Positions 10,618 through 54,918 of a DNA stretch of 64,000 nt are shown here, in pieces. The position numbers and the translations under genes were made by a program. The notes below the pieces were generated by a model. The model was not told where the DNA came from, did not search any database, and saw only the letters and a program-made list of their open reading frames with translations. Source of the stretch: Branchiostoma floridae (taxonomy: Eukaryota; Chordata; Leptocardii; Amphioxiformes; Branchiostomatidae); the NCBI RefSeq assembly GCF_000003815.2, contig NC_049990.1, positions 7,258,770-7,322,769 of the forward strand, given 5' to 3'. Every line of letters begins with the position of its first letter. The stretch's first letter is position 1.

Positions 10618-13600
10618 ATGGCTACCGCAGTCTTTAGGTGGATAATTCAGTCCGTGCAGGACACTTTACAGATCTATGGGCTGAATTTGCAGTCTTTGCT
10701 GGTCTTCTGTACGGCGTTTGTCCTGGCATGTGCACTTCTGAAACGTTCCCCAAACCTGCCTCCTTACCCGGCAGGACGTGTGCCTGTTCTCGGGCACCTC
10801 CTCGCATTGGGCCGAGCGCCACACCTCAAGCTGACGGCGTGGAGGCGGCAGTACGGGGACGTCTTCACCGTCAGGATGGGAATGGAAGACGCGGTGGTTC
10901 TGAACGGCTACACTGCCGTCAAGGACGCGCTCGTGGACAGGTCCGAGCTGTTCGCATCCAGGCCGCCAAACTACCTGTTTGATTTGACAGTTGATTCCGG
11001 AAAAGGTAAAACATTTCATTTCCATTGCTTTGTTAGTTTTCTACATTGCCAAATTGGAAACATAGTTGTCATGGTAAGTGTTAGGAGACATCGATCAGTT
11101 TCTGTATCTATACATTTTCATGTACGAAAGGTGGTATCTCACTGCACTTGCGTCAAGCTTGCGTCACTGTGAGGTTCGTTCGCATGCGTACTGTTTTGTT
11201 ATTTTCTCCGATTTTTAAAAAAATTTAGATATTGCGTAATACGAAAAAATATGACTTAGAAGACGACAAACTACACAAAAAGTAAGAAAATTCGTTCTTT
11301 ATCTCTAAAATTCGTTGAGTATCGAACCCGGCAGTGACGCAAGCGTGACGCAAGTGCAGTGAGATGCCACCTGAAGGGTTGGGAGGAAGCATACCATTCT
11401 GTTCTCCATACCCCGCGGACAAAGGCTAAATCTTGCCGCGGAGGCGTATAACTACAGTCTTGTTACGCAATGGACCATTAAGGGGGCACACCCCAGTTTA
11501 TGTCGGGTTTCAATTGGAGACTGTACACCCCCAAGTCTAGCGACCATCTCTTCCAGGAAATTATCCTGCAGCATACTAATTCTATATGGGGGTAAAATGG
11601 CCAACTGACTTCTGATCCTTCAATTTCTCTAATTTAGAAAAATGAGAGGAAAAAATTCATTGGGCATTTTCGCATTGGATAAAACCATTAAAAAGATTTT
11701 TCCGGCAAACACGACTGATACTGTCAGAAAGAGAAAAATCTTGCGAGTAAAGAAAATTCTAGTAAACTACAGTTTTGTAATCATCCACGTCGCGCGGCAT
11801 TGCAACTACGCTTACACATCACCTCAGAGGTCAATCTAGGTCACAGGACATTCAAGGCGTAAGGATACCCGGAAATAACTTCGGGCAAAAACACAATTTG
11901 CACCCAAAACATATAATTTCCTACGCTTTTCAGCCACGTTAGCGTTTGATGTCATTTCCCAGTAAATAATCACAAATGTAAACTCACACATAGACCATCG
12001 GAAGCTTTTCATCACCTTTTTGTCGTACACCACACCTGAGGTGTGTACCGTTAATGATTTTAATAATATGTACTATATTTGATCTACATGCGATCGCAGG
12101 TAACATTATCAAATATAGTAACTGTTACATAGCATTTGATATGACAAAGATAATGTGGTAAAATGTGATAAATTGTCTGCTATACATGATTGTAAATATA
12201 TCATATGACATCTTTGTTCCTTAAGACATTGCTGCTGCACGTTGGGGGACCCAGTTTAAACAGAGAAAGAAGTTTGCACTCACCGCCTTAAAGAACCTGG
12301 GCATGAAGGTCGGAAATGGCAGCATTCAGGAGAGCATCCGCGAGGAAGCGAGCAATCTACGAAACAGGGTTAGTTACCTTTGAATAACTACTTCTTGGTT
12401 GATGTCTACGTCTACCACATGTGTCCCTTGTTGCCAAAATTCCAGGTCTTTCCAGGATGGTACCAAAACAAAAAATACGCATGACGGTTTATAAATAGAA
12501 AACTCATATACAGTTCCTGGAATTCTTACTCTTACTCTAACCCTAACACAGTACACATCATTAGGCCCGTTCCATGAGAGTGTCGCCAAAATTAGTTATG
12601 CAAGATTCTACGCTGAATAGACTCGTTATTTACTGATGAAGGAATTGTTTAGATTGCAGAATACGAGGGTGAGCCCTTTGACATCGCCCATGACGTCACC
12701 GTGACGGTTGCAAACGTCATCTGCTCCATGACGTTTGGAAAGCGCTACGACTACGAGGATGAAACGTTCCGCGAGCTGTCTGAAGCAATTTTCACAGTAA
12801 TGGCTGAAGTTGGAGCCGGACAGATCGTCAGCGTCTTTCCTTTGTTACGGTTTGTTCCTGTAGGTGAGTAGAGCTCTCATTACTGAGCATTTCCTAATTG
12901 TGATTTCTACCATGTGTACTGCAACGTTCTTCAGGTTCGAATGACCACAATTCACACGGACGCGTGACCATGGTTAGCCTTATGACGTGACGTCAGCAGT
13001 TGATCTGAAGTGCCGCATGTACTGTATATGGTCTCTTTTACACCTTTCAATGAAACTTTATTTGCAAGTTCTTTCCCGATGGCTAATTGCAAGTAACAAA
13101 AATGATAAACGATGGTAAACTGTGTACAGTAGTAGGCGACTAGTTCTAGTGATAAATTCAAATAAACAAAAAAAAAAAAGCAACAAAAATTGCTATTGGA
13201 TTTGACTCCTTTTTCGGAGACAGTAGAAGACGAATGATTCCACCTTTTCGATATGTGTGGGTTTACATGTATTCCCATCATGAAGTAACTGTTGAGTGTC
13301 CAGGACTTTGCCCTTGTCCAGAAGATTTTAGTATATGGTTCACTCGACTCTGAAGTATGGTTACAGTAGAGACTGACGACCATGGTGGACTTTTCTTTGT
13401 TGTATTGTATAACAAAAATACCTTATTATAAAGAAACTTTCCTTCGTTTCAAAGTGTTACAAAAATAGTACTTAGCCAACAATCTATGAATATTGCCATC
13501 CACAGCGAACCGAGCCAGCGTCAGTGTATCTCGACAAATCGCCAAGATCCAAAAAGTGCTGAAAGAAGAAATGGCCCGCCATCGAGAACACCTGGATCGC

Positions 13601-15494
13601 GAGAACCCGCGAGACTTCCTCGACTTCTGCCTGCTGGAGCTGGAACAGCAGAAAAAGAGTCTGACGGAGGAAAACGTGCTGTACATAGCTCAGAACCTCT
13701 TTCTCGGCGGTACAGACACAACCACCCACACACTGCTGTGGAGTCTACTCTACATGACTTTGAACTCCGAAGTACAAAACAAGGTACATTTAAAAAAAAC
13801 AGTTACCCTGCTGGTCTAACAAAGACCGTTGGAAACCGTAACCGGGGCACCAACTCCCTTCCACGGCAACCTCCCTTCCTCGGCAAACTCCTTTTCCCGG
13901 TACCCGGTATAAGAGAACCCAGCCAACGTTTAAAATTGCGAAACAGACCAAAATACAGCCCCGTTCGGAGACTGCGACGAAGGCTAGGTTTTAATCCTTC
14001 AAAGTTTACCACATTTTCGGTTCAGAATTTCATTTGCATACCATACTGACTGCAAAACATTATTCTGTGTGTTTCTTCTACAAACTTTAACAATGTTTCA
14101 AAGGAGATTGCTTTAACGGTTTTGAACAGTTAACACAATTCCGCTTTATTCCTTTAACAGGTACATGAGGAGCTTGATGCCGTTGTTGGTGAGAGTCTGC
14201 CCGCCCTGTCCCACCGTTCCCAGATGCCCTACGTGAATGCTTGCCTGATGGAGGTCATGAGAATCCGTTACGTCGGACCTCTTTCGGTTCCCCACGCCAC
14301 GACAGCGCCTGTAAAAGTGCAGGAATATGACATCCCTAAAGGGACCCAGGTATTGCTACTCATTATAAAATTACAAATGTTCTTAATGTAACGTTCCCAA
14401 ATACTCACTTCCGTTACAGTTGGCTACATGACTGTGGGCAAAAGTTCCATTTATATCTTATAAATGCTTGCAGCGTACACGTACGTATGTCTAATTTTGA
14501 TCCAGGTAATCGTGAATCTGCACTCCCTCCACGTGGACCCCGCCTACTGGCCTGATCCGGACCGGTTTGACCCCGACAGGTTTCTGGACGCGGAAGGAAA
14601 CTTCATCAACAAGCCTGAGTCCTTCATGCCTTTTTCAGCAGGTAAGTAGAGTTCCACAGACTCTATACCTTTGCCAAGCAATATCATTAGTAACATTGAA
14701 AATCAACCAAATTTGCATGATATTCTCACTCCTACAAAACTTTCATGTCACAAATACGAAATCATTTACAAATTAGGCTTTTGCAGCATTTGTTAATCAT
14801 AGATATGCAAAAAAGTGTAAGTTTCATTTGCCTCATTTGTTATGCAAACCAAGTTCCAGTTTGCATAATCCACATACCATTACATTAATTGGTCAAAAAC
14901 GTAGTGACCTATCGTCGTAAAGAATTATGAAAATTTAGTCATCCCTTTTCAATTTATCCTGTTTCAAAGCCTGTAATTGAAACACGCCAGCAGTTCCAAA
15001 GAAAAATGCTGGAGGCTACGGTCAAAGCTTACGTCACATCCGAACACAACAGCTATTTACTACCCAAAATCGTTACCATAGCTTATCCAAAATTAAAAAC
15101 ACAGCTTTCGAATGTTCAGCTGTGTAGTACACGGGAGAGCCACCAAGGGCCCAAAATCTAATTATTTATTTGATATAAGAAGATCTACCCACATACCAAA
15201 TTTCATGACAACCCGTCGTAGCTTATTGATATCGAGTGCCAGGCTTAGAGATGAGGCACTTCCCATTTTCTGTGCTTTTTTTTTTATTTCACCACTTGAC
15301 ATTTTTTATATCCAGGTCGACGCGTGTGCCTTGGTGAGCAGCTGGCCAGGATGGAGCTATTCCTGTTCTTCTCCACCCTGCTGCAGTCCTTCACTTTCAA
15401 ACCGATAGAGGGCGCTCCTCCTCCAAGTACCAAAGGCGTCTTTGGTCTGACCTTGACACCCCATCCGTTCCAGCTCTGCGCGATTCCGCGTTAG
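10618..15494 (+). CDS. Cytochrome P450, CYP2 clan (complete, 7 exons, 507 aa)
   Basis: Microsomal haem-thiolate monooxygenase. Exons: 10618-11005, 12226-12368, 12653-12863, 13506-13783, 14161-14349, 14506-14641, 15316-15494 (stop TAG). The start is the first ATG before an N-terminal hydrophobic anchor ([16 protein letters not shown]), followed by the proline-rich hinge [17 protein letters not shown]. Then come the C-helix [17 protein letters not shown]-helix oxygen-activation motif [15 protein letters not shown]-helix EVMR (ExxR), [11 protein letters not shown] and the haem loop FSAGRRVCLG with the axial Cys. The last two are split by the final intron inside FSAG. Length and motif order match CYP2-family enzymes that oxidise fatty acids, eicosanoids or xenobiotics; the exact subfamily and substrate cannot be assigned. 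TATAAAATG overlaps the start codon, so a TATA box there would be incompatible with using this ATG. All catalytic residues are present. Confidence 0.95.
11129..11372. mobile_element. MITE in first P450 intron
   Basis: Terminal inverted repeats of about 50 bp. The left end is AGGTGGTATCTCACTGCACT and the right end is the complement of AGGTGGCATCTCACTGCACT. The motif TTGCGTCA recurs in both arms. Flanked by GAA on each side, consistent with a 3-bp target-site duplication. No coding capacity. Confidence 0.8.
14690..15260. repeat. Repeat-derived DNA in last P450 intron
   Basis: AT-rich sequence with TTTGCATAAT/ATTATGCAAA-type palindromic words and a segment (ACATACCAAATTTCATGACA) like that in the 38.4-39.1 kb tandem array and the dispersed repeats. 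Probably remnants of the same families. Confidence 0.45.
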
Positions 15495-22426: not shown

Positions 22427-25400
22427 ATGACTGCGTTAAAATCACCGTACAGCATCGAGGGAATCCTCGGGCGGACGAGCAACCCCTCCCGAGGGAGCGA
22501 CGGAAGAGGGTCGGTGATCGTAGCGGGACTTGGCCTGATCGGACCAGCTCCAGGGGCAAAGGAATCGCGCTCTATCCTCGTACAAAGTACGTACCAAACT
22601 CCTCTCTCTCTCAGCGCCAAACTGTGTCTGTACCAAAGTTTGCGTGGAACTGCAGTATGTGTGCATAGCTGTTCTCATCATTTTGCACGCAACGCCGACG
22701 TTAAATAGTGGTTTACGCTACTCGATGATCCGTTACGGTATCACGCCTGTCTTCTTTAGTTGCCACACTTCGCTCATCAGTGCTAAACGACCATCAGACA
22801 CGCTCTGCTACGCCACAGTCGTCTTAATTTGATTACTTGTCTTTAATAGATGTTTGTGTGGTTAATGAGTTAAGTAAATAACGCCTGTTGATTCGCGCCG
22901 CGGGAATATTGTATTCAACGCTTATTATAGGGCGACATTACACAGTTCGTTAACCGCTAGTATGCGAGCAACATTTTGGCTCTTTCCATGTTTCAGCGCT
23001 GCCTTTTAGATACAAGTGATTACGCCATGGTTTGGCTCCTCTACCCTGGTCTAACCCGACCCCACTTTCTGTGGCCGATCCGGTTGCATACTGCTCCGAT
23101 TGCTTTACAATTAGATTACAGCAAAAACTATATATGTAGTAACGCAGACTGTATAGTTTAATACGCATGCACGCCAAGTATGCGTCCCGCTCGCATTGCT
23201 CTTTCCGCCAGAGATGGTAGCCGGGACAGTCATTATCTCCCGCTGTAATGCTTTCTTGCACGACACAAACGAGTCCAAATTGCCCCCCTTTGTCGAAAAG
23301 CTCGGGTAATGCGGTAAAACTTTGCCCCATTTCCGACGATTTTCCCCCGCCGCTTTCTGGAGTGTTTAAGAGCGTGATAAGGGGACCCCGTCGTGATATG
23401 GATGAGATGGGCAACTATCTGACTATGTTCTGTATCACATCATTCTTCTTTACGTCTAAAAATCTAAAACTATTGTAGATATGTCCGACATTAAGGGGAA
23501 GAGGTACATGCTAGGTGATGATTTTTGGATGAGGATTCATGAAATGGAACATAACAAGGAAGCAGTGAAGATAAAATCCTGTAGAATAAGTAGGGAACCG
23601 GAGAATCCAGTTGTCAGGGGGCCTAATTTGGTCCCGTATTTTGATGGATGTGTCAATACCTTTGCCAGTTGTCAGATTCTTCAATTACATCCCGCACCAC
23701 CAGCGTCCCGTCATCATTTACCGACCCCGGGAGTTGAAAGGTGCCAATTACTGGGTCGTAAAAAACTAAATAGCGCCGCCGCGATCGCACTGCCCTACCC
23801 CGGGCCCCCGGAGAGAAACACCGAGCCCAAAAGGACTCCCTAAAACCCAAACTCAAACCTAAAACTCTGCCTGAATAAAGAGCAAATTGCATTAATTCAA
23901 AAGCAAACTTTCCCCGTGGCTCAATTCTCGCCTTTTCTTTGCAGAAAATTGCGGCGGGATGAATGCGGAGGTGGCGACGATCGGGAGAGCTGCAGGGCAC
24001 GAGGACAATAGCGGGGAGAGTGCCGCCCTGGATTTCTCCATTAAGAGAAAATCAGCAGAGGACAAGAAAGACTTAAAGCAAGACTTAAACAGAAACCATT
24101 TCTCGGAGAAAGACATCAAAAAGGAGGACATGCACGAGGGAGAGGACAGCGGGAGCGAGAGCGATTGTGGGCCGCTGGGGAGCGACCTGCCACCGTGCGG
24201 CAGTCCAACAAGCTCCGGTGCCGTCCACGAGGACAAACTGAACGATCTCTGTGACAGTATCAACGGACAAGTGAATTCTTTAGCTGGAATCGACTTGGAA
24301 AACGGCGGGAAAAGGAAACAGAGACGCTACCGAACAACTTTCACAAGCTACCAGCTGGAAGAACTAGAACGAGCATTTGCCAAGACCCACTACCCCGACG
24401 TTTTTACCAGGTGGGCTTTTCTTCATTTCTGCTCTTCTTTTGACCTCTTAATAGTAATCAATTTGCAAGTTTATGCCCGTAGGCTAATTTCAAGTACATG
24501 GTATAAACATAGGAGATATACAAGTGACAATAAACAGTGGTAAACATTATTGTGAAAAGAGGCTACTCGAATACTAGTGTTGGCTATTTCTAAACAGGTT
24601 GTGTTTGACTTCTTTTTAAATAGTTTTCTTTAATGAAGAACACCAGAATTGAAAATTATAACTTGCGTTCATACCTTATAAACCATGCTATCAGCATAAT
24701 TGTAACTTTAAGGTCATAAGGCCATGGTATGGATGTGAATATCATTTTGCAAATACCTTATTTTCTACCAAACAAGTTGCGCGGTTTTTAGGTTGCAACC
24801 GTATTGCAGTTTACAACAATAGGGGCACCACAAATGACAAATGCGAAAAAGAGAGCGGATATAGGCCATTGGTTTAATAGCGCTATAGCCAAATTATTAT
24901 TGTTATTTTAATTCACATTGAAGGCTAGTTTGTTTGTCCATTTGCGGGCCGGGTCGGCGTTCTTGACCGCAAGAATGCCCGGCAGGCTTTGAGGACAGTG
25001 ACAGCGGCTCCGGCCACGAGTGTCCCGTACGGACAGACGTGAGGGATAAGAAGGGACCGACAAGTCCATAAGACCTGAGTAGCTAATGACATCAGGGGAA
25101 GGGGAAGGGTGACACCCCGACACCGTAACTCCGACAGTTGACGGGACCGTCGCACTAAAATTAGCCGGGTCTGTATTTTCCCAGCTGCCGGGAGCGCGTC
25201 GGTTGCCCGGCTTTAATTTCACCCGCGTAAGATCTTCACTTTCCTGATATTAACTCGAGCAGACCAGAGGTCGGACCGAACGGACAGGAAAATTGACCTT
25301 TCCTAATGTGGGATTCTGTCAATGACATTAGATTATGGCGGAACATGGGTGGGCGGCCCGGCCCGGCTACCCGGAGAGACTGTTGTTCTAGACACGCTGC

Positions 25401-28400
25401 GGCTTCGTGGCAGGCCGCCCGTATATTTCATGGTCCAATATATATAGTCCATATTATTTAGTAGTACTTAGCCAGACTGCCATCCTAAGTTAGTTTACCG
25501 GGGCTCACATACTCTCTAAACAACCTGTTGTTAAGGTGGGTTCACATGTGCGTGTATGTTCAAGTCCGTGTGAGGGCCGTGTGGACTTCTTAGCATCTGC
25601 CAGGCTCCACAGGTTGCTGGAAAATAGCACAAATTGGACAAACATAGACGCATAACATGCCAAATGAGCTAGCTGACCGGAGAGTATGGTTTGCTAACTC
25701 CTCTGGTGTGTTATCTGGCTGTATTGGTCCAACTCAATTTTTCTAGCGACCTGTGGAGCCTGTAAGAGGCTAAGAATTCCATACGACTGGATGGCAGTGT
25801 CTAGATTATATATATCATAACGTCTATAACAACGTATCAAACCTAGACGGGGAAACGACATATAGCAATATGCTCAAAACATATCATAGTAGACAAAAAC
25901 GAAGAAACAGTCGACATAATTTCGGAATTTGTCCCAGTACTTAGATATTTTGAATCTTCAGTGTTGAAATGAGCCTGTGAAACACGCTGGAAAAAAAAGT
26001 TCCGATATCAAGATTAAAATTTCAAACCACTGATCTTTCTTTCAAACTTTTGATCAATTTCAAGCATTGTACAAACTTTTCCCCATGACATTTGTCTATT
26101 AGTGTTTATAGATTCATAGAATTTGTACTACTAACATAACAAGGTATTTCGAAGCACAATTTGCAGACTTTGATACTAAGAATGCCTTTGCACAGACTAC
26201 AGTTGTATGGTATTGGTCAGACTAGAACGCGCTGAAATATATCAAACGCGAGGTATCTTGATGATTGGCCAAATATACAAAGCATACTGTGCATTGTCAT
26301 ACCCCGGTTTCGTGTGTTTCAGTGAGATGATTGTCTATTTGGTAGCACATTTCGTTCAAGTGACAGACTGACACACATTTTGACGTTGTCGACGTTGACA
26401 AAAATGGCTCAACTTAACTATAATCGAATTCCTCTGTGATCGAAGTATTAGCAAAGTATATGTCAGTTCTGTGCCTGTAATTCCTCAGAAATAGTAACGC
26501 GAACGTAACGATAATGCCAGCAAACATACATACTAGACAAAGGACAAAGAAGTTAAAATGTTTTACCGTACGAAGTTTGTATTTTGTTCCTTCATAAAGC
26601 CTTTGCTTATGTTTGAGAATATAAATAGCAAAAGAAAAGAGATATTTTGAGACTTACGTTAATAAGATGGTGGCTACGGTACCTCACAGCCACGCCCTAT
26701 TTTAGACTCTAAACAAAACCTTAACAAAAATAAAATGACAAATCTCAAGAAACTGTTCACTAGCCAAAAACAAGACAATCATTTGGTCGCCAACATATAA
26801 GGAGTCTATAACCACTATGCCTATACAATCCATAGCCTGAGCGATGCCTGAAGAAGGAAGATTGTCAAACGAGGGTTAGCTTGTAGTTTTATATAACGTC
26901 CTTGCTTGTAATGAGTACAGTTTTGGAAATGATATGCGTAAAAGTAAAATGTATAGTCAAGAAATCAAACCACAAGACAAAAGTTGCCATGTATTCTTCT
27001 GCAAATGAAACAAGATGAGCTAATGTTGTCACGTCACTTTAACAGACCCATCCGCAAACTCCATAGAATAAAATGGTAATGTGTTATTACGTTCCCCTCT
27101 ACAGTACAATGAAGCAAATAGAAGTAAAGACTATGTACTATAATACATGAGTAGATCTGTGTGTAAACCTTTCGTTAAAACAGACAATTATGCTTACAAA
27201 AAAAGGCAAACAAATCGAACTAAGGCAGTGCTTGGATACTGTGGTTTTGGGCCTTATAGTTCTGTGTGCTTCACCCTCTTCAAACCCTGGTATCATGTTA
27301 TACGTATTCAAATTCGTATAGGTAAGAACTAAGTACTCTCTTTTTCAGTTTGATTTAGCGTATTGAAATCTTGCCAACAACCGTCTGTGAACACTTAGTT
27401 TGCAGTATATTTTACGGCGTGTATGGTGCAGGCTGTATTTCGATGCAGTAATCAGAAAGGGAATTTACTGGTGAAAACGTACAGACGTCATGAAAATACC
27501 CCACCCTTTGGACTGGTCGTGATGTCATCTTAATCCTCTACAAACCCCGGATAGGGTGTCTCCTGTATGGCGCAATCTTGCATAATTTTGTATTTTTTAA
27601 ACCAAACATGAAAAAATAGACGAGGACAAAATAGCACTGCACTCAAGTGATGTACCTTATATCAACACACAACACATCACATCAAATGACTAAATAAAAG
27701 CAAAACAGGCACTATAATGATACTATACGTATAAGTAGCGCCATTCTCCACTTCACAAGTTGTCAAATATAGACAGTATTACTGATACACTAGTTAAGAT
27801 TTACGATTTTGAAAGCTGGTTTGGATTACGTCTATACATGTATGTGTATCTGTAACACAAACGTGTGGGATCTGTCTCGCAGAGCTTGAAGGATGAGTCC
27901 TATAAAATGATCATAAGTTGAATTTGATATGTGCATCTTTGCCAGAGTCCGTATTTTACAAGCTGACAGAATAGATACATTAGTCGACTCACTCCGATCT
28001 ATGCGGTACAATTCTAAACGAACTTTTCGCCTTTTTTTTTCTAATTTGTCGGGAAGGGTATCGTATTCACCACGACCAAAAGCGATTAGATAAGATTTTT
28101 CAATAGCTTCTTTCCTTGTTGTAATCAGTGCGTTTCAAGTCTTTTGATTGACTTGGCCAAACAGTGTTTAGGTGAAGGCATGTTTCCCCAATCTATTGTA
28201 AATATTAACAAACTAGCTAGTTAAAACTTATGGACAGTTTATTTTGCGATACACCAGTCTCCATGCATCACATTGGACCCATGATCTTGTAACGAAGTAG
28301 TCAATACAACATTGATGCCTTCACTGTCAACCGTGTACAACTAAAGATGACGTCCCTGCCATTGACAAACACGAAATGTGAAAATTGAAAAGAGTTTACA

Positions 28401-31400
28401 TATCTATATCTACTCGACATAAAGAATTACAAACCCTGATGACACTACTTTAATCTTAAACTGACATTTATGCAAATATCGAATATCTTTATGCTTTGGT
28501 TGATATTAATATCTTTCTTCATTTGAACTTCGTGAAATCATATGTAAATATTTGTTCTATGCATCACGCTTTGACGTAACATGTGTTTTGAAGACAGCTG
28601 ATATCATATGACAGATAGATATGTAGAAATATGGGCATTTCTGTTCTATAAATACCAGGATACTAGGTGGGGTTCGTTCATGAGTATGTCATATCGTGAT
28701 ACCCGTTAACATTGTTCAGCCACATGCATGTTACGGTGAGTTGCTGTGGAGTTTGTCAACCACAAAATCAATAAACGTCTCTTCTTTAAGCGGTTGAAAT
28801 TTTCTTCTTTGTAATGGTGGACGAGGGAAATGCACAGGATATAAGCGAGCCGTGTGGGTGTGGCACTTTGAAGTACACAAAATCTGTTTTCATATACCAG
28901 CTTCTTAAATCTTGTTCATGCCACGCATGTTAAAAGTCAAACAAACAAAATGATTGTTGCCCAAACATCATTTTAGGATTTACAAAAAGTGAACTGATGT
29001 ATGAGTATCATAGCAGAATCGATATGGACACATGCATGCCCATGTCAACTTTTGCACATCATGTGTGTTGATTAATGACAACAAGTAAACACGTTTTTTA
29101 CTGTTTGCGGTCGAAACTCTTGTGGTTTCGTAGTGGGAAGGCTTCTCGAAAACCGCGAAACTAAAACCATGGCAAATACATGTAAGTCAAAGTTTACTGT
29201 ATTCAGGCCACGGTCATCTTTGTTAATCATAAATAACGGTGGCTGCGGGATCTGATCTGATCAAATCCTCGTAGTTATCATACAGAGTAATAGATACAAA
29301 AATTGTTTTCATTGCCATAGTGTCAATAGACGTGTTTCCCATGGGGCCAATGCTCACTTATGGCAATGAACTGTCTTCCGGGGAATCCCAACAAGCTAAT
29401 CAACTCTAAAGCCAACACTGAGCTCCCCTGGGCGCTGTTTTGTCTTGAAATAATTCCGTGGAACAACAACTTTAATCAGCCGAGTGACATGTCATGTGTT
29501 CATTACAATTGGACCACAATCGCGGTCATGGTGGCTACATGTATAGATATGGATCCATGGGTTGTGGACCAGTGATAATTAAAACCGACGGATATTGTTT
29601 TATTGGTGTAACATCTGTTATTGGTTGTAATGAATGAAAGAGCTAGGCTAATTGTGTATAACAATGACTATTTCTTAAGTCAATTGTTAATTGGCTCGAC
29701 GCCCTTGCTGTCGTTCGATGATGACCTCGCTCCTTTAAAAAGGTCGTTTATTTTCTATTGTGGAAAGAAAACTACTCTTCTCTTAGTTAACATCACAGAA
29801 CTCACACATGATAAATTGGTGGTTTCGTCTTCCACTGTCTCCAAGAAAAGAAGCCAAGCCTAACTAGTTAAGTTTTAGAGTTAGTATTTGAATCAGAATA
29901 GTCGTATGTGATATTACTGTTATTCTTCATTCACCGTCTTTCTGTTTCTCAACATCTAACTACATGTTGTTGCCTTATTACAGGGAGGAGTTAGCAATGA
30001 GAGTGGATCTAACCGAAGCTAGAGTACAGGTAGGTCCAACTAAGCCAACTCTACTTTTCTAAACAAGATATCAAAATACAAGGTTCTGCTGCAGGATCAT
30101 AGAAAGTCCATAGGATAGACACTATAATCTAAGTGCTTTATCTTTTGACACATTCTATCTATCTACCATTCCATAGGAGCTGATGCATCTAAATACTGTG
30201 AAATTTATTTCCGTTTCTTCCATTCACCACTTAAGTCTGTTCACTCCTTTTCTTTCATTATCTTGTCAACGTCAGTCATTCTTTTAATCTTTATTATTTT
30301 GAATATAAGGGTACATTTTACGTAAAGAGCATGCCATGTATGGCAAGGAAAACCAATGTAGCCAAAAGACAACAACACATTGTAAATTTAATATCTGATG
30401 ATCAGATATCAAATGATATTCACAATCGGATTTTTTTTCTTAAAACAAAATTGTTTTAAGTCTTTTTGGGGAAAGTTGAATTGAAGTTGAGAAATTTTTC
30501 GCACATAGTTCTCCCACGAACCCCCCTCCACCATCCCCACTCTATATGACACACACATCCCGGGTCATAATCACCATTGCCCGCTGCCAGCCGTCCAAAT
30601 TGCGCGCGAAAATTGTGTCCATTTACCCTGCCCCAATTATGCCCATTTCTGCCGAGAAGTAAAACGGGAAATGGCAATTCTCCGATAATGAACCAACTCT
30701 TAACGAAAATGGCTTCAACCCCGGGACCTCTTTCGACGGCAAAGATTGCCCCCGAATTTTCTCCCTGATTTGCCTCGGCTGGCGGGGAAATTTGCTTAGG
30801 GTAATTTGGCCTAATTCTCGGGCTATTTAAGCAATTATTGTCAACGTTTTGCGACGGGAGGATTTGATTGCAGATTGTGTCGCCGCGCGCAGCGCTTAAC
30901 TCGTCAAATTGCCTCCCCGCTATAGGAGAGATCTACCGCCGCTCTTCGGAAATCTCTGCGGCCCCGCTTTGTCTTCCCGAGCAATCCATACCCAACCCTC
31001 TAATCACGCAAAATTGAAAAGCGGGAAATTACAGAGAAGGCTCATTCAATTTTATTAGCATTCAACAGGATGCGTTACTCGAGTCGATGTAATTTCGAGA
31101 AAATTGGTCGAAATTGGCGGTTCTCGAAACACAATGTGCAAATCTAATAGTGCGATGGGAGCGGCGGGATTGTATGAGTGACAACCTGCTTATAGTAAAA
31201 CTGAAAGGTCCTGGCCCTTGTCAGACTCCTCAGGTCGTGTAGGAGAAGAAAATGCCCCCTTCCTGTAGCGTTTGCCACTTCACGAGTTGATAAAGTTGTC
31301 AAAAGTTGAAAAGAAGAAGCGATCTACAAGCTTGACGCGTGTACAATTTGGTGAATGTGTATTACTCAGTTAATGAAGACCGTCTGGTAGCGAGAGTAAA

Positions 31401-32792
31401 GACGTATAATCACCGTTCTTGAGCGACAGACAATCATCCCGACTTTAAAGGAGCCCTGTTGGATATGGCGTGTTACATGCCTCTTTATTCCCGTTAGTTA
31501 CGGGCCGATTGTTCAGGGAAATGCAGTTTATAACAAAGTGGCAGCTGTAGTATTCTCTATGTGTTCGTAAAAACCTTTAAAGGTTTTTACGTTGTTTTGA
31601 CGAAACTCTTGCGTTTATGAGCTATTTACAGAAAACATTTAGTCCAGACTGTTTTACGTCAATACAGTGAAAGTTCACTTAAGGGCAGATCCACATATTT
31701 GCTTCGTATCCAGATAGTTTTCATAAATCATATATTTTGTTTGATCCTATATATTACTGCAAAATGAGCGGTACAATATATTTGTGAACCTCTCCGACTA
31801 TTTCAAATGCCGAAAAAATCATCCCTAGGCAACTGAATTTTCTGTTCACAAAATAAAGACTTACTACAAGAGGAGGCAAAAGAATACGACATCCTCTCAA
31901 ATTCTTTTTTGACTGTCGTACTGTATGCAGTAGCCAGTAGTATGCAAATGTCCTACTGATCATGATTCCTAAACCCTTTTCCTACAGTCTTACACCCCCT
32001 TTCCAATAGGACGGCGCTTTCGTCGCGCTCTCTCTGCGCTCCTCAAATTTAAGAGATCGCTCAACGAATTGTTTAGAAAAACGAATCTCTTAATGCTTTG
32101 TGTGTTTTGTTGTCTTTTCAGTCACACTTTTGTATGATATGCCCAGTATGGATGTCGAAGGTAAAACACACCCGTTTTAGGTTGCAGTGAGAGCGCAGCG
32201 CGATCGCTGTCTAAACGAAATGGGCCTTATTTTAGTTATATAACAGTGTATATCAATATGAAATATTCTATTGCATATCTGTTGTAACATGGCCCGTATA
32301 TTGTTGTTACAGGTTTGGTTCCAGAACCGGCGAGCCAAATGGCGGAAGCGAGAAAAGGCCCAGGCCCAACAGCAAGCCCAAATGCAGCTCCACCACCCCG
32401 GGGGCCTCCCGGGGGTCCATCCCTACCTGGACATGGGCTGTGCTCCCCACCACCCTGGGGAACATCCCCCGGGGGTCCCCGGTCTAAGCTGCCCGCCGCT
32501 GTCCCCTCTCCCTCCCGCCCTCCACCCTGGATCGTTCCCCCTCCACCCTGCCCTCGGCGGTGGGCTGCTCAGAACGCCGCTGGGTCCGGCGGGGTTCTCG
32601 CCGTTTCTCCGCGGGGCCGCTCCCGTGTTCCGCCCAATGCTGCAGGTGGACGGCTTGCAGGCGCTGGCTGAGTCCGACCGCCGGGCATCCAGCATCGCCA
32701 CCCTCCGCCTCAAAGCCAAGGAGCACTCGGCACAGATCGAAGCGCTGGGACAACACGCTAAACCTGCCACACTGAAGGAGGTGTGCTCCTGA
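22427..32792 (+). CDS. Arx: Aristaless-related homeobox transcription factor (complete, 4 exons, 383 aa)
   Basis: Nuclear paired-like homeodomain factor; ARX orthologues act in forebrain, neuronal and endocrine development. Exons: 22427-22586, 23945-24410, 29984-30029, 32313-32792 (stop TGA); phases 1, 2 and 0 join exactly. Exon 1 gives the eh1/octapeptide-type repressor motif in [16 protein letters not shown], comparable to the N-terminal CIDSILGR of vertebrate ARX. Exon 2 has an acidic/serine stretch ([10 protein letters not shown]), then [19 protein letters not shown], which opens the homeodomain. The homeodomain spans about residues 179-238 with Q50 and N51 in VWFQNRR, and is interrupted at codon 31 and between 46 and 47; the second is the classic paired-class intron. 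Exon 4 has a His/Pro/Gly-rich region and the OAR domain [20 protein letters not shown], ending LKEVCS as in ARX. The polyalanine tracts of vertebrate ARX are absent. The ATG at 23959 is an alternative start but would lose the octapeptide. Confidence 0.95.
22860..23460 (+). promoter_or_regulatory. Candidate conserved non-coding block in Arx intron 1
   Basis: High-complexity, repeat-free sequence with clustered homeodomain words (ACAATTAGATTACAGC), TAATGCGG and GTAATGC. Open frames across it have no recognisable protein similarity. Enhancer function is inference. Confidence 0.3.
24411..29983. other. Arx intron 2 (5.6 kb)
   Basis: The large intron inside the homeobox holds no second gene that I can support. 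The first kilobase (24920-25400) is GC-richer and repeat-poor; the rest is AT-rich unique DNA. A long 5' half-intron is common in developmental homeobox loci and may hold cis-regulatory modules. Confidence 0.6.
24920..25400 (+). promoter_or_regulatory. Candidate regulatory block in Arx intron 2
   Basis: GC-rich, repeat-free sequence with homeodomain-type words such as CTAAAATTAGCC, GGCTTTAATTTC and GACATTAGATTATGG. Open frames here lack recognisable domains. Regulatory role is inferred from composition and position only. Confidence 0.28.
30030..32312. other. Arx intron 3 (2.3 kb)
   Basis: Splits the homeobox between codons 46 and 47. It contains the repeat-free block 30480-31160 described separately; the remainder (31160-32312) shows no gene, repeat family or RNA that I recognise. 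Confidence 0.6.
30480..31160 (+). promoter_or_regulatory. Candidate conserved enhancer in Arx intron 3
   Basis: About 680 bp of high-complexity, moderately GC-rich, repeat-free DNA between the last two homeobox exons. It carries many short homeodomain-type words: CGATAATGAACC, GGTAATTTGGCCTAATTC, GCAATTATTGTC, CTAATCACGC, GGAAATTACAG and TCTAATAGTG. The composition contrasts with the surrounding AT-rich intron. No coding potential. Confidence 0.35.
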
Positions 32793-34045: not shown

Positions 34046-37000
34046 CCCCCAGCCTCCCTAGGCCGGCGTCACGTTTCCAAACCGGGGCCCGGCCGGTCAG
34101 CTTTCGAGAACAAAAAAAGTATGGTATAAAAGACACCAAACTACACAAGACATAAAGAGTCGTGGGCATTATGTCTGTATATTTTTACGTGTTCGTTTCT
34201 ATGGAAATGTGACGTTAGCCTAAGCAGGCTAACATACTAGTAGTCAACAGAGATACTGCTCTGACTGCCCAGGGTGCATTATGAAAACCGTTCTGAAATA
34301 CAGCTTCTCCAACATAGTACTAATAGACCTGCTGAAATACAGAAAGGGGCACAATTAGAGATAAAAGCAAATGCACGGTCTCCGGACTGACCGTAAATTG
34401 ACCCCGCAATTGGCCCAGGGTAGAGTTTCCATTTGTCAAATCGTCGTAAATATAACCACACTTCTGGGGGTTACAGAAAGACCAACAACATGGGTGCTGT
34501 TCTGGTAACAAACAAACGTACAGATAAACCACTGGTACACCCTTTGCTAGAGCTATTAGAGAGAAATCGACGCCTTTGTTTTAGATAATCATCGGTAACG
34601 TTTTTGTCTATATTTAGTTTGATGACAACGTCAGCGTTCGTCATACTAATATGGCATACGTTTAAAATTGTAAGTGTATATTGAGTCGTATGGAAATGAA
34701 TTATAAAAGTTCATATAGACGTAACGTTATGTATAGACCCGTCAACTGTGACATAATGTGTATTGTAAGTGAATGAGTTCTCATGAGTATCGGGCTTCCC
34801 ATGTAACTATATTTAAATGAATCCCTCGTGTAATTTATTACTTAAGAATGTCAATATCTCCAGGCATGGTGTTATGCTACACTCGACGTAAGTGGCGTTT
34901 ATGCTTGTACAAGTGGTGCGTATCAGTCAAGAAATTTTGTCCATTGTTGTATATTGTGGAAATTTATGGATGTCTTCGAAAATACAGTATCTATAGAACC
35001 CGTCTCTTGATGTCTAGAGTTTTAATTCTATGTGTAAATACAGCTGCGAGGTCTGTAAAAGATTTTTTATTCTCCACTTAGCTTCTTGGCTCTTTGTAAT
35101 GTTATATTTTATTGACCCACTCGTTTGTGATGTAAAGGGTCGTTCGTTTGAAGTAGAAATTCGATTAGATTTGGAGTTTGCCGAACGTATTTGCTCCTGT
35201 AGCGCAGAGTGTGTCCTTTGTCTGGCGGGAGCAGGGTATCCAGGCCCGGGGAGAGGCAGGCGACATGAATGCGTTCTCCGGGCATCTGCAAAAGCCTAAT
35301 CCAATTTGAGAAGGTGCAGCCAGTCAGCATCGGTAAAGAGCAGAAGGAAAACTGACCCCAATTTCTCATGCTGCTCTTATATTGTAGAACAATCAAGTAG
35401 AATAGCAGTACCAGGAAGTCCTCTTCGTTGAAAATCAGTAGGCCGTTCTTGCACGCAATAAAGCAATAACATACGTTCTACTACGAAAAAGAAATACGGA
35501 AAATATGTGGAGCAACGAGAGCTAGAGAAGAAGGCATGCATCAAATTTCATTTTTGATATTTGCATACGTTGACAAAAAAATCTGGAATATTTTATGCTT
35601 TTTAGTTGCGTTGTCTGGCACTTGTACATGCATATCTTGAATTCTTGACCAATATCAGTATGAGAATATTATGCAACATTCGTGTGGCGTTTTTGGACAA
35701 CAATTTCACAAACCTTGCAGCAAAATTATCCTGAAGTACCGGTGGAATTTTCCCGTCTTTTCCCCAAGGGCCTTCTTAAGGGTTAACATAAATAAGATGC
35801 TGGTATCTTGTTTCCTTGAAGGTTGGGCTCCTGAAGGACTGTAAATATTGTCAAGTTCCTATAGTATCAAGACGGCTCGTTTGGTCGACAGGGCACACCA
35901 GTTTCTGTCAGTGTCAGACGATTTTTTTACGTGCTCGAATGACGGATGGCGGCCATGTTTGCTCACGTGTGGGGGTCGCCATGTTGGATCCCGCCCGATT
36001 ACAAACCAATGAAAAGGAACTTTTGTTCGGCCTAAAGGGCCGCTTCGCGGGGACAACATGCCGACTGTGTCACCATGGTAACCGCAAGGTCAAATGTACA
36101 AACCATGTGGACTTGGTATTAGCACTGTCATAGCAAAGTTGCAACCAAACTAGTTTCTAAGTTCACTAGATTAGCTCCTTTTTGTCACAGGTTGGTCAGG
36201 TTAACGCATTAGTATCATTTGCTGATACACCGACATTGCACTTCAAACAATATCGACCGTGTGCGTTTCATTGAGTACGACCTATCAATAGACGAGGACA
36301 AAGAAGCACGGCCCCATATTGTACAAATTAAGGCACTTTCAATAACTAAACCGAAAAGCAATCCCTTTTACATTCTTAAAAGTGCATTTATTAATGTTTC
36401 GCGCCATTGTCTTCGTGATGACGGCATCTTTGCACAATTATCTCAAACTCAAAACTCAAGGTTTTTGTCTAATCAACGACACACTATTATGATGACAATT
36501 GGTTATCCAAAGACACCTATGCTCTGACATCTGTACTGTGCAACGTATCGATATCCGCAGCACAATTCCGATTGAAATAAACATGCATCCGATTACACTG
36601 CGCTAACACTAGCATATACCTAGCCTCTACCAGGCTGTGGTAAACTTACCGCTGCGCCGACCATGTCTTCAGTCCAGTAGGTTCCCCTTCAGTCTGTTCG
36701 TTTCCTAGGATTTGTTGAGTCCGGTTGGAATCCAACCTAGCTTGTCTGATTCATAGCTAAAACCCTTTGATCGAGCTTCCATCTGATAGAACGAAATATG
36801 TCTGAAAGCTAGAACCCCGAGCTTCTTGCTAGAAGCGTTCAGCCAAATGATCACATTCAAGGTTTTGTAGCCATATCACTACAAGCTTTATTATTAAGGC
36901 AAGCGTGTTACAGAAGTGTCGTATGAACAGTACTTATGATAGTATGTCGATTGGCTTGTTGCACGAAACGAAACGTACCCGCTACATCATCATCTTAGTG

Positions 37001-38084: not shown

Positions 38085-41000
38085 TTAGATAAGGCATGCA
38101 GGGTTGTTGCAGTACTCCCAGCGGGTGCTAGGGTCCGTTGTGTAGCACCACAGGCCGAGCGCCCCATCCGGGTTGCGGCAGTAGTTCTCGGGCGGGTCAG
38201 AGTGATTATCAAACCACCACCAGTAGTAGGGATAAGCGTGTGGATAGTTGAGATCCCATCGCTGACAAGTCTTCCCACTTCTAGTGACGGAGAGATTCCC
38301 GCGGTAGTCAGATCCGTCACTCTTGTCTGGGCAGACTGGGCCATAAAAAACATTTTGTGATTATGCCAAAAAGCAGTTACTCAAGTTACTTAAGTCTTTA
38401 AATACATCTCTTACTCTCTTCCCTCTTTCTCAGTTACATATGTGACAACTTTGAAAGTACTATAAAGGAATGCAGTGGATTTATGAACTTTTCCTAATCA
38501 ATTATGCAAATTAGCTGTTAATTTGCATAATAAATATCACATTATATAAGTCTTCACTTAGGCTATTTACATACCAAAAATCATGACGATCCGTCAACAC
38601 GTTCATATTTTCTAATTAATTATACAAATGAGGTCGTCATTTGTACGATGAATATGTCTTAACATTTCTCTCTTTTTCAGCTACATATGTGACAAGTTTT
38701 AAAGTCCTATCATGGAATGAAGTGGATTTATAAAATGTCCTCATTAATTATGCAAATTAGCTGTTGCTTTGCATAATTGGTATCTCATTATGTAGGTCTT
38801 CACTTACGCTACCTACATACCAAAAAAACATGATAATCCGTCAACATCTTCATATTTTCTCATTAATTATTCAAATGAGGTCATCATTTGCATAATTTAT
38901 ATCTATTGACATTTCCCTCCTTCCCAGCTACATATGTGACAAGTTTCAAATTCCTATCATGGAATGCAGTGGATTTATAAACTTTCCTCATTGATTATGC
39001 AAATTAGCTGTTGATTTGCATAATTAGTATCCCATTATGTAAGTCAACACTCATTCTATCTACATACCAACAATCACGAAGATCCGTAAACACGTTGTAG
39101 AGTTATTCTCGTCCAAAGTTTGAAAGGAAACCGGCGCCTGCTGCAAAGCGGCGCCTGCTGCAAAGCCGCTAGGAGGCCCAAACTCACAGCACTTACTCTC
39201 TGCCCCAAGGGCTATCTACCACTCAAAAATCATGACCACAACATGTCCAGAACACGAGATATAAAAAAATGAGTTTCCGATGCAGTACCTTAGCAAGCCG
39301 CTAGGGGGCCCATTATCGAACTTGACCTTCGTTTTCCCGACCCCTACCCATCTACCAAATATCATCAGGATCCATCCAAGGCTTCTTGAGTTATGCTGTT
39401 GACACAGAGACACACAAACACGCCCAAAACATAACCTTAGCCATTCTGACGAAGGTAATAAAAGTACAAACTGTAAATAGTAACCTGTTTTATCCGCATT
39501 CTTCATGAGGCAAGAGGCGTGGTCACGTGATCCTTCATCTGAAGCAGGAAAATGAAAACCATAATGAAACTTAACATATATGAGAGTCTTTACATATATT
39601 AAGTGTTAATAAGATTTCGTAGACCATGAAAAGCAATTTGGAACCACACGGACATCAGTAGATGTCTCAAAATGTACTATCCAAGCAAAGATTAGGCTCC
39701 GGCTGTTTTTTTTTCACATTTTTTTTTCACTGGACTGCAACACGGAGGAACTTCAAGGAGAGGAGCTGGTACGGTGGACAAGAGGTGGGTATGCAGGTGA
39801 ATAAAAGTTGCAAATGGCTGAATTGCAGGTAAGTAAAAAGAAATTGTCGTGACCTACCCTGTGTCAGCTGACAGATGAATTTCAGAGTAGTGTCGCACCT
39901 CAGGTCATTCCACCCTCTGCCCCTAGCGGAAACGTAGTGCACGCAGTCTTCCCCGGCCCCGAAAGCGTCGTCTGGTTGGCCCGGTTGCCAGTTACCCCAA
40001 TCAGAAGTCGCGTTGTATGGCGTCCAGTCTACCCACATCCACTCACCCTCGCCCAATTCATCGCTCAGCCCGAACCAGAAATATTCGCCACTATCCACGG
40101 AGTTCTTCAGCTTCACCAGAAAGGTGTCGAGGTCTTGGTTCTTCGGCATGGCCAGGAGCCCCCCGTCATCTTCACACACATGTCTGGCCTGGCTGTACGT
40201 CTTGGCTTGGTTGTACGCCTTGAAGAAAGTTCCGTCGTATGAAGTGTAACCAGAAGGACAACCTGGGGAAATATGATCATCCATAAGTTAATGTATGTAG
40301 ATTTTGTTTTTGTTCAGCTAAGTTTTGCAAGTTTAGGTCTGGTTGTGGGCCTTGAAGCTTCCATTGTTATATTATATAACGTTATATGGAGTATAACCAG
40401 AAGGACAACCTATTGAAATGTCCCTAAAGGGTCGTTCTGACTTGGTGCGGAGTGTAGACAAAAGGACAACATGTTGAAATATGGTATTCCTTAAGTTAAA
40501 GGTTGGAAGTTTAACAAGAAGGACAACCTGGTGAGATAATGATAATCGTTTAGGTATATGTCGCAGGTTTGGCGTTTGCTTGTTCGCCTTGAATCATGGA
40601 TATCAAAAGCTATCAACCACCCAAACAATCTGAACAAAGCGTGTCCATGAAATAAAGATAGATTGAAAAAAAACTGCTTCGACATAATTTCTTAATCATT
40701 TTTGCAAATGTTGTCCTATTTTGCATAATCTACATTTCACCTACATACCTACCAAATTTGTTGTTCCTTTCTTAGCTTCACTATAGTTAACTTCAGTTAC
40801 CGAGTTATCTTGACGGTTGTTCACCAAATATGACCACCACTTTTCGCGGAGAAAGCGTTGACAAAAAAATGAAAACAGCGAGAAAACTATTATCTCTCTT
40901 GTCTAATTATCCTTCTTTTTTATTTTATCATACCCCAATTAAAAACGGGTAAACAGTACACAAAGTGGACGATATTAGGCTGTGCATGAAGTAGTAGCGC

Positions 41001-41642
41001 TACGTTAGGAATTGATAAGTTACTAGTAGGCAACAATACCTTTTTCTGTTTTACCTGGTTGATCAGTGGTTGTCTGCGGAGTGCGGAGATCAACCAGTGT
41101 TTGATCTCGATTAGGAGAGCCGGTAAACTGCAGCTGTGGCCTGCCTGCAAACGTGTAGGTTGTCGTTTCGTTGGAATCTGGACCTATAGGAGAAAGTACC
41201 ATTGAAAAATCTTCGAATTCAGACAAAGATGGTTGAATACGAACAATAGGTACGTGAAGACTTAACAACAACACTCACAATACGTGTTATCGTAGCCTGG
41301 GTTCCATCCGATTTCAACCGAGGCTTCTTACGTACACTCGCTGCCCTTTGCTTGTTTTTGCAACATCGAAACTCCTTTCCAGTCCTGTTTCTAGTATTCT
41401 AAACGGAGGAGATGAACCATTGGAAAATACAACACTACAAAAGAATTCCAAATGTTGCAAAAACAAGTAAAACACCGAAAATGAGAAGATACAACATACA
41501 CTTCGTCGAGACGGTGAATGTAAATAAAACAATAATAATGATAATTATGATCATTAACGGTGTACTTACAGTTTGAAGAGATACACCCCATGGCAAGCAT
41601 CATGCCGAAAATGACCAGCATTCTCTGTTTTGTGGCCCCCAT
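38085..41642 (-). CDS. Secreted C-type lectin plus kringle protein (complete, 4 exons, 285 aa)
   Basis: Exons on the minus strand: 41642-41570, 41183-41055, 40262-39858, 38335-38085 (stop TAA); every intron is phase 1, so each exon is a symmetrical module. Exon 1 encodes a signal peptide (MLVIFGMMLAMGCISS). Exon 2 encodes a Thr/Gln-rich linker (TPQTTTDQPG). Exon 3 is a whole C-type lectin domain: GLLAMPKNQDLDTFL, WFGLSD, WMWVDWTPYNATSDWGNW, the QPD motif in WQPGQPDDAF and GWNDLRC. QPD with WND predicts calcium-dependent galactose-type binding; NAT is an N-glycosylation site. Exon 4 is a complete kringle with six cysteines: DYRGNLSVTRSGKTCQRW, NYCRNPDG, LWCYTTDP, RWEYCNNPAC, then LI and stop. 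The lectin domain starts CPSGY but lacks the usual partner Cys, and another lone Cys follows the signal peptide, so inter-chain or unusual pairing is possible. Expected to be an extracellular carbohydrate-binding protein; biological role unknown. Confidence 0.92.
38431..39095 (-). repeat. 247-bp tandem repeat array in lectin-kringle intron
   Basis: About 2.7 units of a 247-bp monomer, with starts aligned at CAGTTACATATGTGAC (38431), CAGCTACATATGTGAC (38678) and the third at 38925. Each unit holds ATTATGCAAATTAGCTGTT and a TTTGCATAATT partner. The units are diverged by point changes and small indels. It separates the lectin and kringle exons. Confidence 0.85.
39180..39465 (-). repeat. Dispersed repeat copy 4
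   Basis: Minus-strand copy of the 9300-9530 family: GCAGTACCTTAGCAAGCCGC, TAGGGGGCCCATTATCGAAC, AATATCATCAGGATCCATCC, then CCCAAAACATAACCTTAGCC at the end. Confidence 0.8.
39678..39712. repeat. Solo arm of the CCAAGCAGAGGTTAGGCTCC element
   Basis: ATCCAAGCAAAGATTAGGCT followed by CCGGCTGTTTTTTTTT matches one arm of the foldback element at 60030-60200. No opposite arm is seen nearby, so it is a truncated copy. Confidence 0.55.
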
Positions 41643-42039: not shown

Positions 42040-43320
42040 TTATTTTCAGCGAGGAGAACTGGATATTGGTACACTTCAAACAGTTTTAGTCAAATACTGC
42101 GACATAGAAATGCTCGTTTTCCCCTCAAATTGTCCTCAAAGGAAAATTTAGTTGATCTTGTAACAGCTTGTCTTCGTAAGTTGGAAAAACTGGCATCAAA
42201 AAGTAAAAAGAAATTGTGGAAGAGGCACAGATATCATATACAGTTATATGTTATAAGAGCCGGCGTAAACAATGAACCTTAGCCGGATCCTTAAATATGC
42301 TTGAAGATCACATGTGCAGTGGTGTGGAGGTTATGTTCCAGGAAAAGATCATTCATGGCTGTCCGTGTGTCCTTGGAGTGGCGGAGAGCATTTGTCTACA
42401 GTTTGAAGTAGAGGCCATGGCTTTTGACTATCTTATAAGTTAAGCCGGCAGATACGAGCGTATAGGTACAGTCCAAACAGTTATGGTCAAATACTAGTAG
42501 TGCGACATAGAAATTTTCGTTTTTTCCCTCAAATTTTCCTTAGCCGGGTCCTTTCATCTGCTTGAAATTCACATGTGAGATGGGGAGATTAAGATCGACG
42601 TTCCGAGAAAAGATTATTCATGTGACTGACAAGTCAGTCATCATGTGTGTCCTTGGAGTGGTGGAGGGTGTTTGTCTACCGTTTGAAATTAAGGTCGAGC
42701 CTTTGGACTGTCCTACAAGCTACTCATACTCGTTTTTTCCCCTAGAATTGTCCTCAAAAGAAAAATCAGTTGGCCTTGCAAAAGTTAGTCTTCGTATGTT
42801 TCAAAAACAGGCATTAAAAAGTAAAAAAGCAAAAAAGAAACTGGAAGAGAAAGTACTATGTGTTGTAAGATCAGTAGATCCTGTCACCTGCTTAAAGATC
42901 ACATGTGGAATGGGATCCATTTGCCGAGAAAAGATCGCTGTTCTGGGAAAAGATCATTCATCTGTGTCCTTGGGGCAGTGGAGGGTATTTGTCTACCATG
43001 TGAATTGAAGTAAGGCCGAGGCTTTGGACTGTCGCATAAGGCCTTATAAAAGTTATAAGTTAAGCCGGTAGATATAGGTGCAGTCCAAATAGTGTGACAT
43101 AGAAATACTCGTATTTCCCTCAAATTTTCCTCAGCCGGGTCCTTCATCTGCTAGAAGATCACATGTGGGATCGGATGGGGCTTGAGATCGACGCTCCGAG
43201 AAAAGATGACTCACGTGTGTCCTTGGAGTGATGGAGGGTGTTTGTCTACCGTTTGAAATTAAGGTCGAGCCTTTGGACTGTCTTACAAGCTAAGCCAGCA
43301 AAACCGAGCGGGAAAAAAAG
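42040..43320. repeat. Degenerate tandem array, unit about 250-340 bp
   Basis: Four recurrences of a block with AAGATCACATGTG, CGAGAAAAGAT, TGTGTCCTTGGAGTGGTGGA, GTTTGTCTACCGTTTGAA and CCTTTGGACTGTC, centred near 42360, 42640, 42950 and 43210, separated by CAGTCCAAACAGT...GACATAGAAAT segments. Spacing varies, so the array is old or rearranged. The open frame at 42562-43008 inside it has no recognisable domain and is probably chance. Confidence 0.75.

Positions 43321-44935: not shown

Positions 44936-54918
<9,983 letters not shown>

What the first reader, a model, noticed from the sequence alone, without database searches (positions are those of the whole stretch)
38085..41642. Secreted protein joining a galactose-type C-type lectin to a C-terminal kringle
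The reading frame runs through four exons with a signal peptide, a Thr-rich linker, a complete lectin domain (QPD and WND calcium/sugar residues) and a six-cysteine kringle, all on phase-1 introns. This is typical exon shuffling. Kringles usually occur with proteases or growth-factor-like domains; I know of no vertebrate protein with just this pair. It could be a soluble pattern-recognition or coagulation-like factor peculiar to this lineage.
Basis: partly seen in the sequence, partly recalled or inferred. Interest (0 to 1): 0.7.

Follow-up and report, generated by a model that had tools for sequence, protein, structure and literature searches.

The report
Lancelet secreted lectin-kringle protein gene
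This is very probably a real five-exon animal gene, apparently from a lancelet, for a secreted protein that joins a sugar-binding lectin domain to a kringle domain; the same two domains also lie side by side elsewhere in this genome, so it is a neat case of exon shuffling rather than a one-off.

Summary
On the minus strand, 41642-38085, exons on phase-1 introns encode a signal peptide, linker, C-type lectin domain (Pfam 3.1e-18; QPD, WND) and six-cysteine kringle (1.5e-21) with a stop. A partly decayed copy on another contig (L039) keeps the order lectin / mini-exon / kringle / stop; its mini-exon differs by an in-frame 3-nt gap, and dN/dS is about 0.4 over 192 codons. That argues for one gene, unlike a lectin-fn2 fusion in lancelets that ESTs refuted (PMC4967905, passages). 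The pairing is not unique: 8 of 20 kringle regions read (20 of 121 groups) hold lectin-domain matches, on the kringle's strand; shared transcripts are not shown.

Likely function (inferred): a secreted Ca-dependent lectin, galactose-type by motif, whose kringle docks a protein partner. There is no protease domain, and one acid of the kringle lysine-binding pair is missing (recalled criterion), so a coagulation role is unsupported. No transcript was available.

The parts
41570..41642 (-). Exon 1: start codon and hydrophobic signal peptide (MGATKQRMLVIFGMMLAMGCISSN), ends in phase 1 at a gtaagt donor
   Evidence: donor in top 2.6% of GTs on the strand; hydrophobicity
41055..41183 (-). Exon 2: Thr-rich linker, phase 1-1; an alternative donor extends it to 41040
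   Evidence: no relative of this exon was found in L039 or in L041-L049
39858..40262 (-). Exon 3: C-type lectin domain with QPD and WND, four core cysteines, one odd N-terminal cysteine (residue 69), phase 1-1
   Evidence: Pfam Lectin_C; 9 nearest paralogs in the same genome
39485..39538 (-).
   Evidence: splice scores and open frame; homologous 51-nt mini-exon in L039 2019-1969 with an in-frame 3-nt gap, local alignment score 29 against a maximum of 17 in 500 shuffles
38085..38335 (-). Last exon: kringle with six cysteines, stop two codons after the last cysteine
   Evidence: Pfam Kringle; copy in L039 with the same C-terminal CLI-stop
36887..36892 (-). AATAAA, first poly(A)-type hexamer after the kringle stop
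   Evidence: no AATAAA or ATTAAA on this strand between the lectin exon and the kringle exon (shuffled chance of none 0.077)

Best explanation
A single five-exon gene, in what is very probably a lancelet genome, makes a secreted protein of about 303 residues before signal cleavage: signal peptide, Thr-rich linker, C-type lectin domain, 18-residue cysteine-bearing hinge, kringle. Shown here: the open five-exon frame, the two domains, the phase-1 boundaries, and a second locus with the same lectin / mini-exon / kringle / stop order and a conserved mini-exon. Inferred: it is spliced as one transcript and secreted; calcium held at the QPD/E/WND site binds a terminal sugar, galactose or GalNAc type, on a microbe or a glycoprotein; the kringle, lacking one acid of the classical lysine-binding pair, is a protein-docking module that ties the lectin to a partner (matrix, receptor or protease), so the protein acts as a soluble lectin adaptor or opsonin, not an enzyme. 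The combination arose by exon shuffling through phase-1 introns, which is reported to be frequent in lancelets.
For: Frame, phases and splice sites; Pfam domains; PDB relatives, with plasminogen and HGF kringles and mannose-receptor, langerin and CLEC4F lectin domains among the top rows; copy L039 with the same order, pooled dS 0.54 and dN 0.22 over 192 aligned codons, pN/pS 0.55, 0.47 and 0.54 for kringle, lectin part and mini-exon; no poly(A) hexamer and no convincing signal-peptide first exon in the lectin-kringle intron; exon GC above intron GC; 8 of 20 kringle regions with lectin-domain matches on the same strand. 1-1 exon shuffling in lancelets: PMC4284660, section 14 read. EPN mannose / QPD galactose rule: PMC5379193, start of abstract seen in a listing.
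Against: No transcript was seen. The kringle acceptor is only in the top 5.4% of AGs and the mini-exon donor in the top 7.5% of GTs, by recalled matrices. Absence of a poly(A) hexamer is weak (P of none 0.077). The L039 copy lacks the 5' part of the lectin exon, has a frameshift in that exon, and no exon 1 or 2 was found there, so it is not an intact second gene. Its lectin has EPD and WDD, not QPD and WND. An odd cysteine is left in the lectin domain. Expression site, ligand and partner are unknown.
Confidence: 0.6

Rival explanations
1. Two neighbouring genes: a secreted lectin that ends after exon 3 or 3b, and a separate kringle gene, joined only on paper. This is what ESTs showed for a lectin-fn2 fusion predicted in two lancelet species.
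For: Precedent PMC4967905 (passages seen). Kringle acceptor is moderate.
Against: The lectin / mini-exon / kringle / stop order is kept at a second, unlinked locus with pN/pS about 0.5. The kringle exon starts in phase 1 without a start codon of its own; of 21 ATG frames of at least 12 codons in the intron, the most hydrophobic (39577) has no phase-1 donor and the 39444 one has only 10 residues before its first one. No poly(A) hexamer lies between. The lectin exon ends at a strong donor (top 0.8% of GTs).
Confidence: 0.08
2. A single gene, but the lectin domain does not bind sugar; the protein is a structural or adhesion module of matrix or mucus in which both domains bind proteins.
For: The nearest paralogs vary at the sugar tripeptide (EPN 4, QPD 2, EPD 2, QPN 1 of 9) and the L039 copy has EPD/WDD; the first disulfide of the long-form lectin fold is broken (9 of 9 nearest paralogs keep it).
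Against: All five recalled calcium-site positions are filled: Q, D, E, N, D.
Confidence: 0.25
3. A relic or non-expressed shuffled gene.
For: The L039 copy is damaged; decayed partial copies of the lectin exon start lie in intron 2 of the window gene.
Against: The window copy is open across all five exons and the pair shows more synonymous than replacement change.
Confidence: 0.07

Closest known systems
Galactose-type C-type lectins (CLEC10A/MGL, ASGPR1, CLEC4F)
   Same: Lectin_C fold signature, calcium-site residues, QPD and WND; CLEC10A, ASGPR1 and CLEC4F chains are among the PDB sequence matches
   Different: Those are type II membrane receptors (recalled); this one has a signal peptide and a C-terminal kringle, and lacks the second N-terminal cysteine of the long form
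Macrophage mannose receptor family
   Same: Among the best PDB matches of the lectin domain; pairs lectin domains with fn2, a module held to be akin to kringles (recalled)
   Different: No fn2 domain and only one lectin domain here
Kringle proteins: plasminogen, HGF
   Same: Kringle closest among PDB chains to plasminogen and HGF kringles
   Different: No trypsin or other domain; DGA where plasminogen kringle 4 has the acidic pair DAD (alignment; role of the pair recalled)
Amphioxus adhesion GPCRs with Kringle or Lectin C-type domains
   Same: Same animal group and same mobile domains (PMC2246102, passages)
   Different: Membrane receptors; the passages seen do not say that the two domains share one protein
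Predicted lancelet lectin-fn2 fusion (018300_PFF0 / XP_002588697.1)
   Same: A lectin domain followed by a kringle-like module in lancelet gene models
   Different: ESTs split that one into two genes (PMC4967905, passages); here the linking exon is conserved at a second locus
Other kringle loci in this genome with lectin domains (L016, L019, L021, L024-L028)
   Same: Kringle and lectin exons on one strand within a 10-kb region; 7 of 7 lectin pieces sent to Pfam pass the cut-off
   Different: In the kringle exons where one search found a good donor just after the last cysteine, the kringle is an internal exon; in the window it is the last exon. Lectin domains are split over two exons on C14

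Membership tests
C-type lectin domain superfamily | Lectin_C profile over the curated cut-off | tested here: met
   66.9 bits against 22.6
C-type lectin domain superfamily | Two core disulfides (four cysteines) | tested here: met
   Cys 97, 174, 190, 198; sequence only
Long-form C-type lectin domain | Extra N-terminal cysteine pair | tested here: not met
   First cysteine present, second replaced by Phe; 9 of 9 nearest paralogs have both
Galactose-type C-type lectin | QPD with the remaining calcium ligands E and ND | tested here: met
   QPD..GEDC..WND in the sequence; the list of ligands is recalled
Galactose-type C-type lectin | Calcium-dependent galactose binding | not testable with these tools
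   Needs protein
Kringle domain | Kringle profile over the cut-off, six cysteines | tested here: met
   76.9 bits against 34.3; six cysteines
Lysine-binding kringle | Acidic pair D-x-D/E after NP | tested here: not met
   DGA here; DAD in plasminogen kringle 4 (alignment). In fetched loci of this genome DGE 16, DGD 6, DGA 4 of 57 motif matches, overlapping loci counted more than once. Criterion recalled
Plasminogen/prothrombin-type protease | Trypsin domain | tested here: not met
   Only Lectin_C and Kringle in Pfam at E 0.001
Single gene rather than false fusion | Transcript spanning both domains | not testable with these tools
   No RNA data
Single gene rather than false fusion | Linking exon and order conserved at a second locus | tested here: met
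   L039; that copy is itself partly decayed
Phase 1-1 shuffled exons | Internal exons flanked by phase-1 introns | tested here: met
   Exons 2, 3 and 3b have lengths divisible by three and are open in phase 1-1

The most novel reading that the evidence does not exclude
The fusion rewired its disulfides. The lectin domain lost the second cysteine of the long-form N-terminal pair (kept in 9 of 9 nearest paralogs), leaving Cys69 odd, while the mini-exon between lectin and kringle brings a new cysteine (Cys212), conserved in the copy on another contig. As the two ends of the lectin fold lie close together (recalled), Cys69-Cys212 could form a new disulfide that fixes the angle between lectin and kringle, with Cys25 left free for a covalent dimer: a lectin-kringle unit made rigid by a shuffled 18-residue exon.
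Probability: 0.2. Interest if true: 0.45.

Novelty: new variant of a known kind. Interest (0 to 1): 0.3.

Why it matters
Claims of new domain combinations in lancelets have been disputed as gene-prediction errors (PMC4967905, passages). Here a linking mini-exon is conserved at two unlinked loci, which is an RNA-free argument for a real lectin-kringle protein and a test that could be applied to other disputed fusions. It also shows that lectin-kringle neighbourhoods recur in this genome, so the pair can be studied as a series. Beyond that it is an expected product of known lancelet exon shuffling.

Tried and rejected
Two-gene model: examined and judged unlikely. Structure prediction of the lectin exon and of the kringle exon from single sequences gave mean pLDDT 33.0 and 39.7; both models were discarded and no fold search was run. 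Rfam and tRNA scans of the window found nothing. Relatives of exons 1 and 2 and of the mini-exon were not found in L041-L049, and exons 1 and 2 not in L039. A genome search with the whole gene as DNA, and one with exon 2, were asked repeatedly and never answered, so allelic or further copies are untested. A first tblastn pass found lectin hits in 4 of the 20 kringle regions (L016, L019, L021, L028, the last with a stop inside); the iterated profile raised it to 8 of 20. The random-scatter estimate (P 4e-9 for 8 of 20; 0.0005 at five times the lectin density; 0.007 for 6 of 18 clusters at that density) ignores clustering of lectin genes and rests on 1097 first-look candidates, so it is only a rough guide. 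The 20 regions are the first 20 of 121 kringle groups in contig-name order (C1, C12, C13, C14), not a random sample, and the 121 groups come from the 150 best-scored of 528 candidates.

Literature: paper searches brought up no description of a lectin-kringle protein of this layout that I noticed in listings or passages; supplements and closed journals were not searchable, so this is no proof of absence from print.

Full report
What is there. The gene lies on the minus strand. Exon 1 (41642-41570) carries the start codon and a hydrophobic stretch and ends in phase 1. Exon 2 (41183-41055; an alternative donor extends it to 41040) is a Thr-rich linker, exon 3 (40262-39858) the lectin domain, and the last exon (38335-38085) the kringle and stop. 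Pfam reports two families only: Kringle 76.9 bits and Lectin_C 66.9 bits, both over their cut-offs. Exon GC is 0.48-0.56 and intron GC 0.36-0.38.

A fifth exon. In the lectin-kringle intron a 54-nt stretch, 39538-39485, has the best acceptor score of the gene and is open in phase 1-1. Only 3 such mini-exons occur in both strands of the window at its own score thresholds, 0.04 expected per intron of this length; the thresholds were set after the fact and the matrices are recalled. The independent evidence is a second locus.

The second locus. A search of the window's own genome (G000, 513 Mb, 431 contigs; window = C12:7258770-7322769) with the kringle gave as best non-self match C1:25834311-25834553, 66% identical (150 of 461 candidates scored). 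L039 around it holds, on one strand and in the same order, a lectin exon ending FICQLTQ, a 51-nt mini-exon at 2019-1969 and a kringle ending CLI-stop. The mini-exon pair aligns with an in-frame 3-nt gap; its local score is 29 against a maximum of 17 in 500 shuffles. Nei-Gojobori counts on 192 aligned codons give dS 0.54 and dN 0.22; pN/pS is 0.55 for the kringle, 0.47 for the lectin part and 0.54 for the mini-exon, without confidence limits. Against a simple reading: this copy lacks the 5' part of the lectin exon, carries a frameshift there, and shows no exon 1 or 2. It is partly decayed, but the order was there when the copies parted.

Two genes or one. Lancelet gene models are known to be error-prone, and a lectin-fn2 fusion predicted in two species was split by ESTs (PMC4967905, passages). 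Here the exon that links the two domains is conserved, the kringle exon begins in phase 1 without its own start, no poly(A) hexamer lies in the intron (weak: P 0.077), and none of 21 ATG frames of at least 12 codons in the intron makes a convincing signal-peptide exon. I put the two-gene model at 0.08.

How common is the pair. The own genome has at least 150 kringle exons over the Pfam cut-off, of 528 candidates with 150 scored. I read 20 ten-kilobase regions around kringle groups, the first 20 of 121 in contig-name order. With an iterated profile, 8 of 20 hold lectin-domain matches, all in these 8 on the kringle's strand: L016, L019, L021, L024-L028, of which L024-L026 are one neighbourhood. 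Pfam confirmed 7 of 7 lectin pieces sent to it, from L016, L019, L021, L027 and L028; L024-L026 were not sent. Splice phases in these loci are mostly, not always, compatible with phase-1 joins. Conversely, the nine nearest lectin paralogs (55-61% class; L041-L049) show no kringle in their 3.4-kb loci. So the domain pair recurs in this genome, in several layouts, while this gene's lectin comes from a branch whose nearest members have other partners or more distant ones.

Details that bear on function. Calcium-site residues read Q, D, E, N, D, the galactose-type pattern by the EPN/QPD rule (PMC5379193, start of abstract in a listing). The nine nearest paralogs read EPN 4, QPD 2, EPD 2, QPN 1, and the L039 copy EPD with WDD, so specificity shifts easily in this branch. 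The kringle has DGA where plasminogen kringle 4 has DAD, so classical lysine binding is not expected (criterion recalled). The protein has three cysteines outside the standard pairs: 25, 69 and 212. Cys69 is odd because its usual partner is Phe here and Cys in 9 of 9 nearest paralogs; Cys212 comes from the mini-exon and has its counterpart in L039.

Explanation. I favour a secreted lectin adaptor: the lectin binds terminal galactose-type sugar with calcium, the kringle docks a protein partner. Gene structure is well supported; everything about binding is inference. No protease domain, no transcript, no expression data.

Where it comes from. Neighbours in the window are cytochrome P450 exons (about 10.6-13.8 kb), a homeodomain gene with OAR motif (23.9-32.8 kb), which I take as ARX-like from memory, and an armadillo-repeat exon (52 kb) that looks like importin alpha. 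With the assembly size and the very large lectin and kringle sets, this points to a lancelet, probably Branchiostoma floridae; that name is inference, no call gave it.

Known and new. Frequent 1-1 exon shuffling in lancelets is in print (PMC4284660, section 14 read), and Kringle and Lectin C-type domains were reported in amphioxus adhesion GPCRs (PMC2246102, passages). Lancelet kringle proteases listed in PMC6337849 (passages) have SRCR, LDLRA, PAN and Trypsin, no lectin, in the rows seen. I noticed no report of this layout in nine paper searches. I rate it a new variant of a known kind, interest 0.3.

Noticed in passing
window 40380-40419, 40441-40480, 40498-40537 (minus strand): Three decayed partial copies of the acceptor and start of the lectin exon lie in intron 2 just upstream of it (73-83% identical over 40 nt), traces of local tandem duplication.
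   Followed up: partly
window 38419-39096: A repeat with a 247-nt period, rich in ATGCAAATTAGCTGTTGATTTGCATAAT-like inverted repeats, fills much of the mini-exon to kringle intron.
   Followed up: no
window 42091-43292: A family of diverged direct repeats upstream of exon 1.
   Followed up: no
window 23896-32789 (+): Homeodomain split over two exons plus OAR motif, ARX-like by memory.
   Followed up: partly
window 10567-13816 (+) and 51986-52297 (+): Cytochrome P450 exons, and an armadillo-repeat exon resembling importin alpha.
   Followed up: partly
L039 2946-2584 (minus): Copy of the lectin exon with its 5' part missing and a frameshift, next to a minisatellite-like tract; the kringle and mini-exon there are open.
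   Followed up: partly
L024-L028 (C14): Kringle exons with lectin domains split over two exons on the same strand, in neighbouring loci: a possible separate kringle-lectin family.
   Followed up: partly
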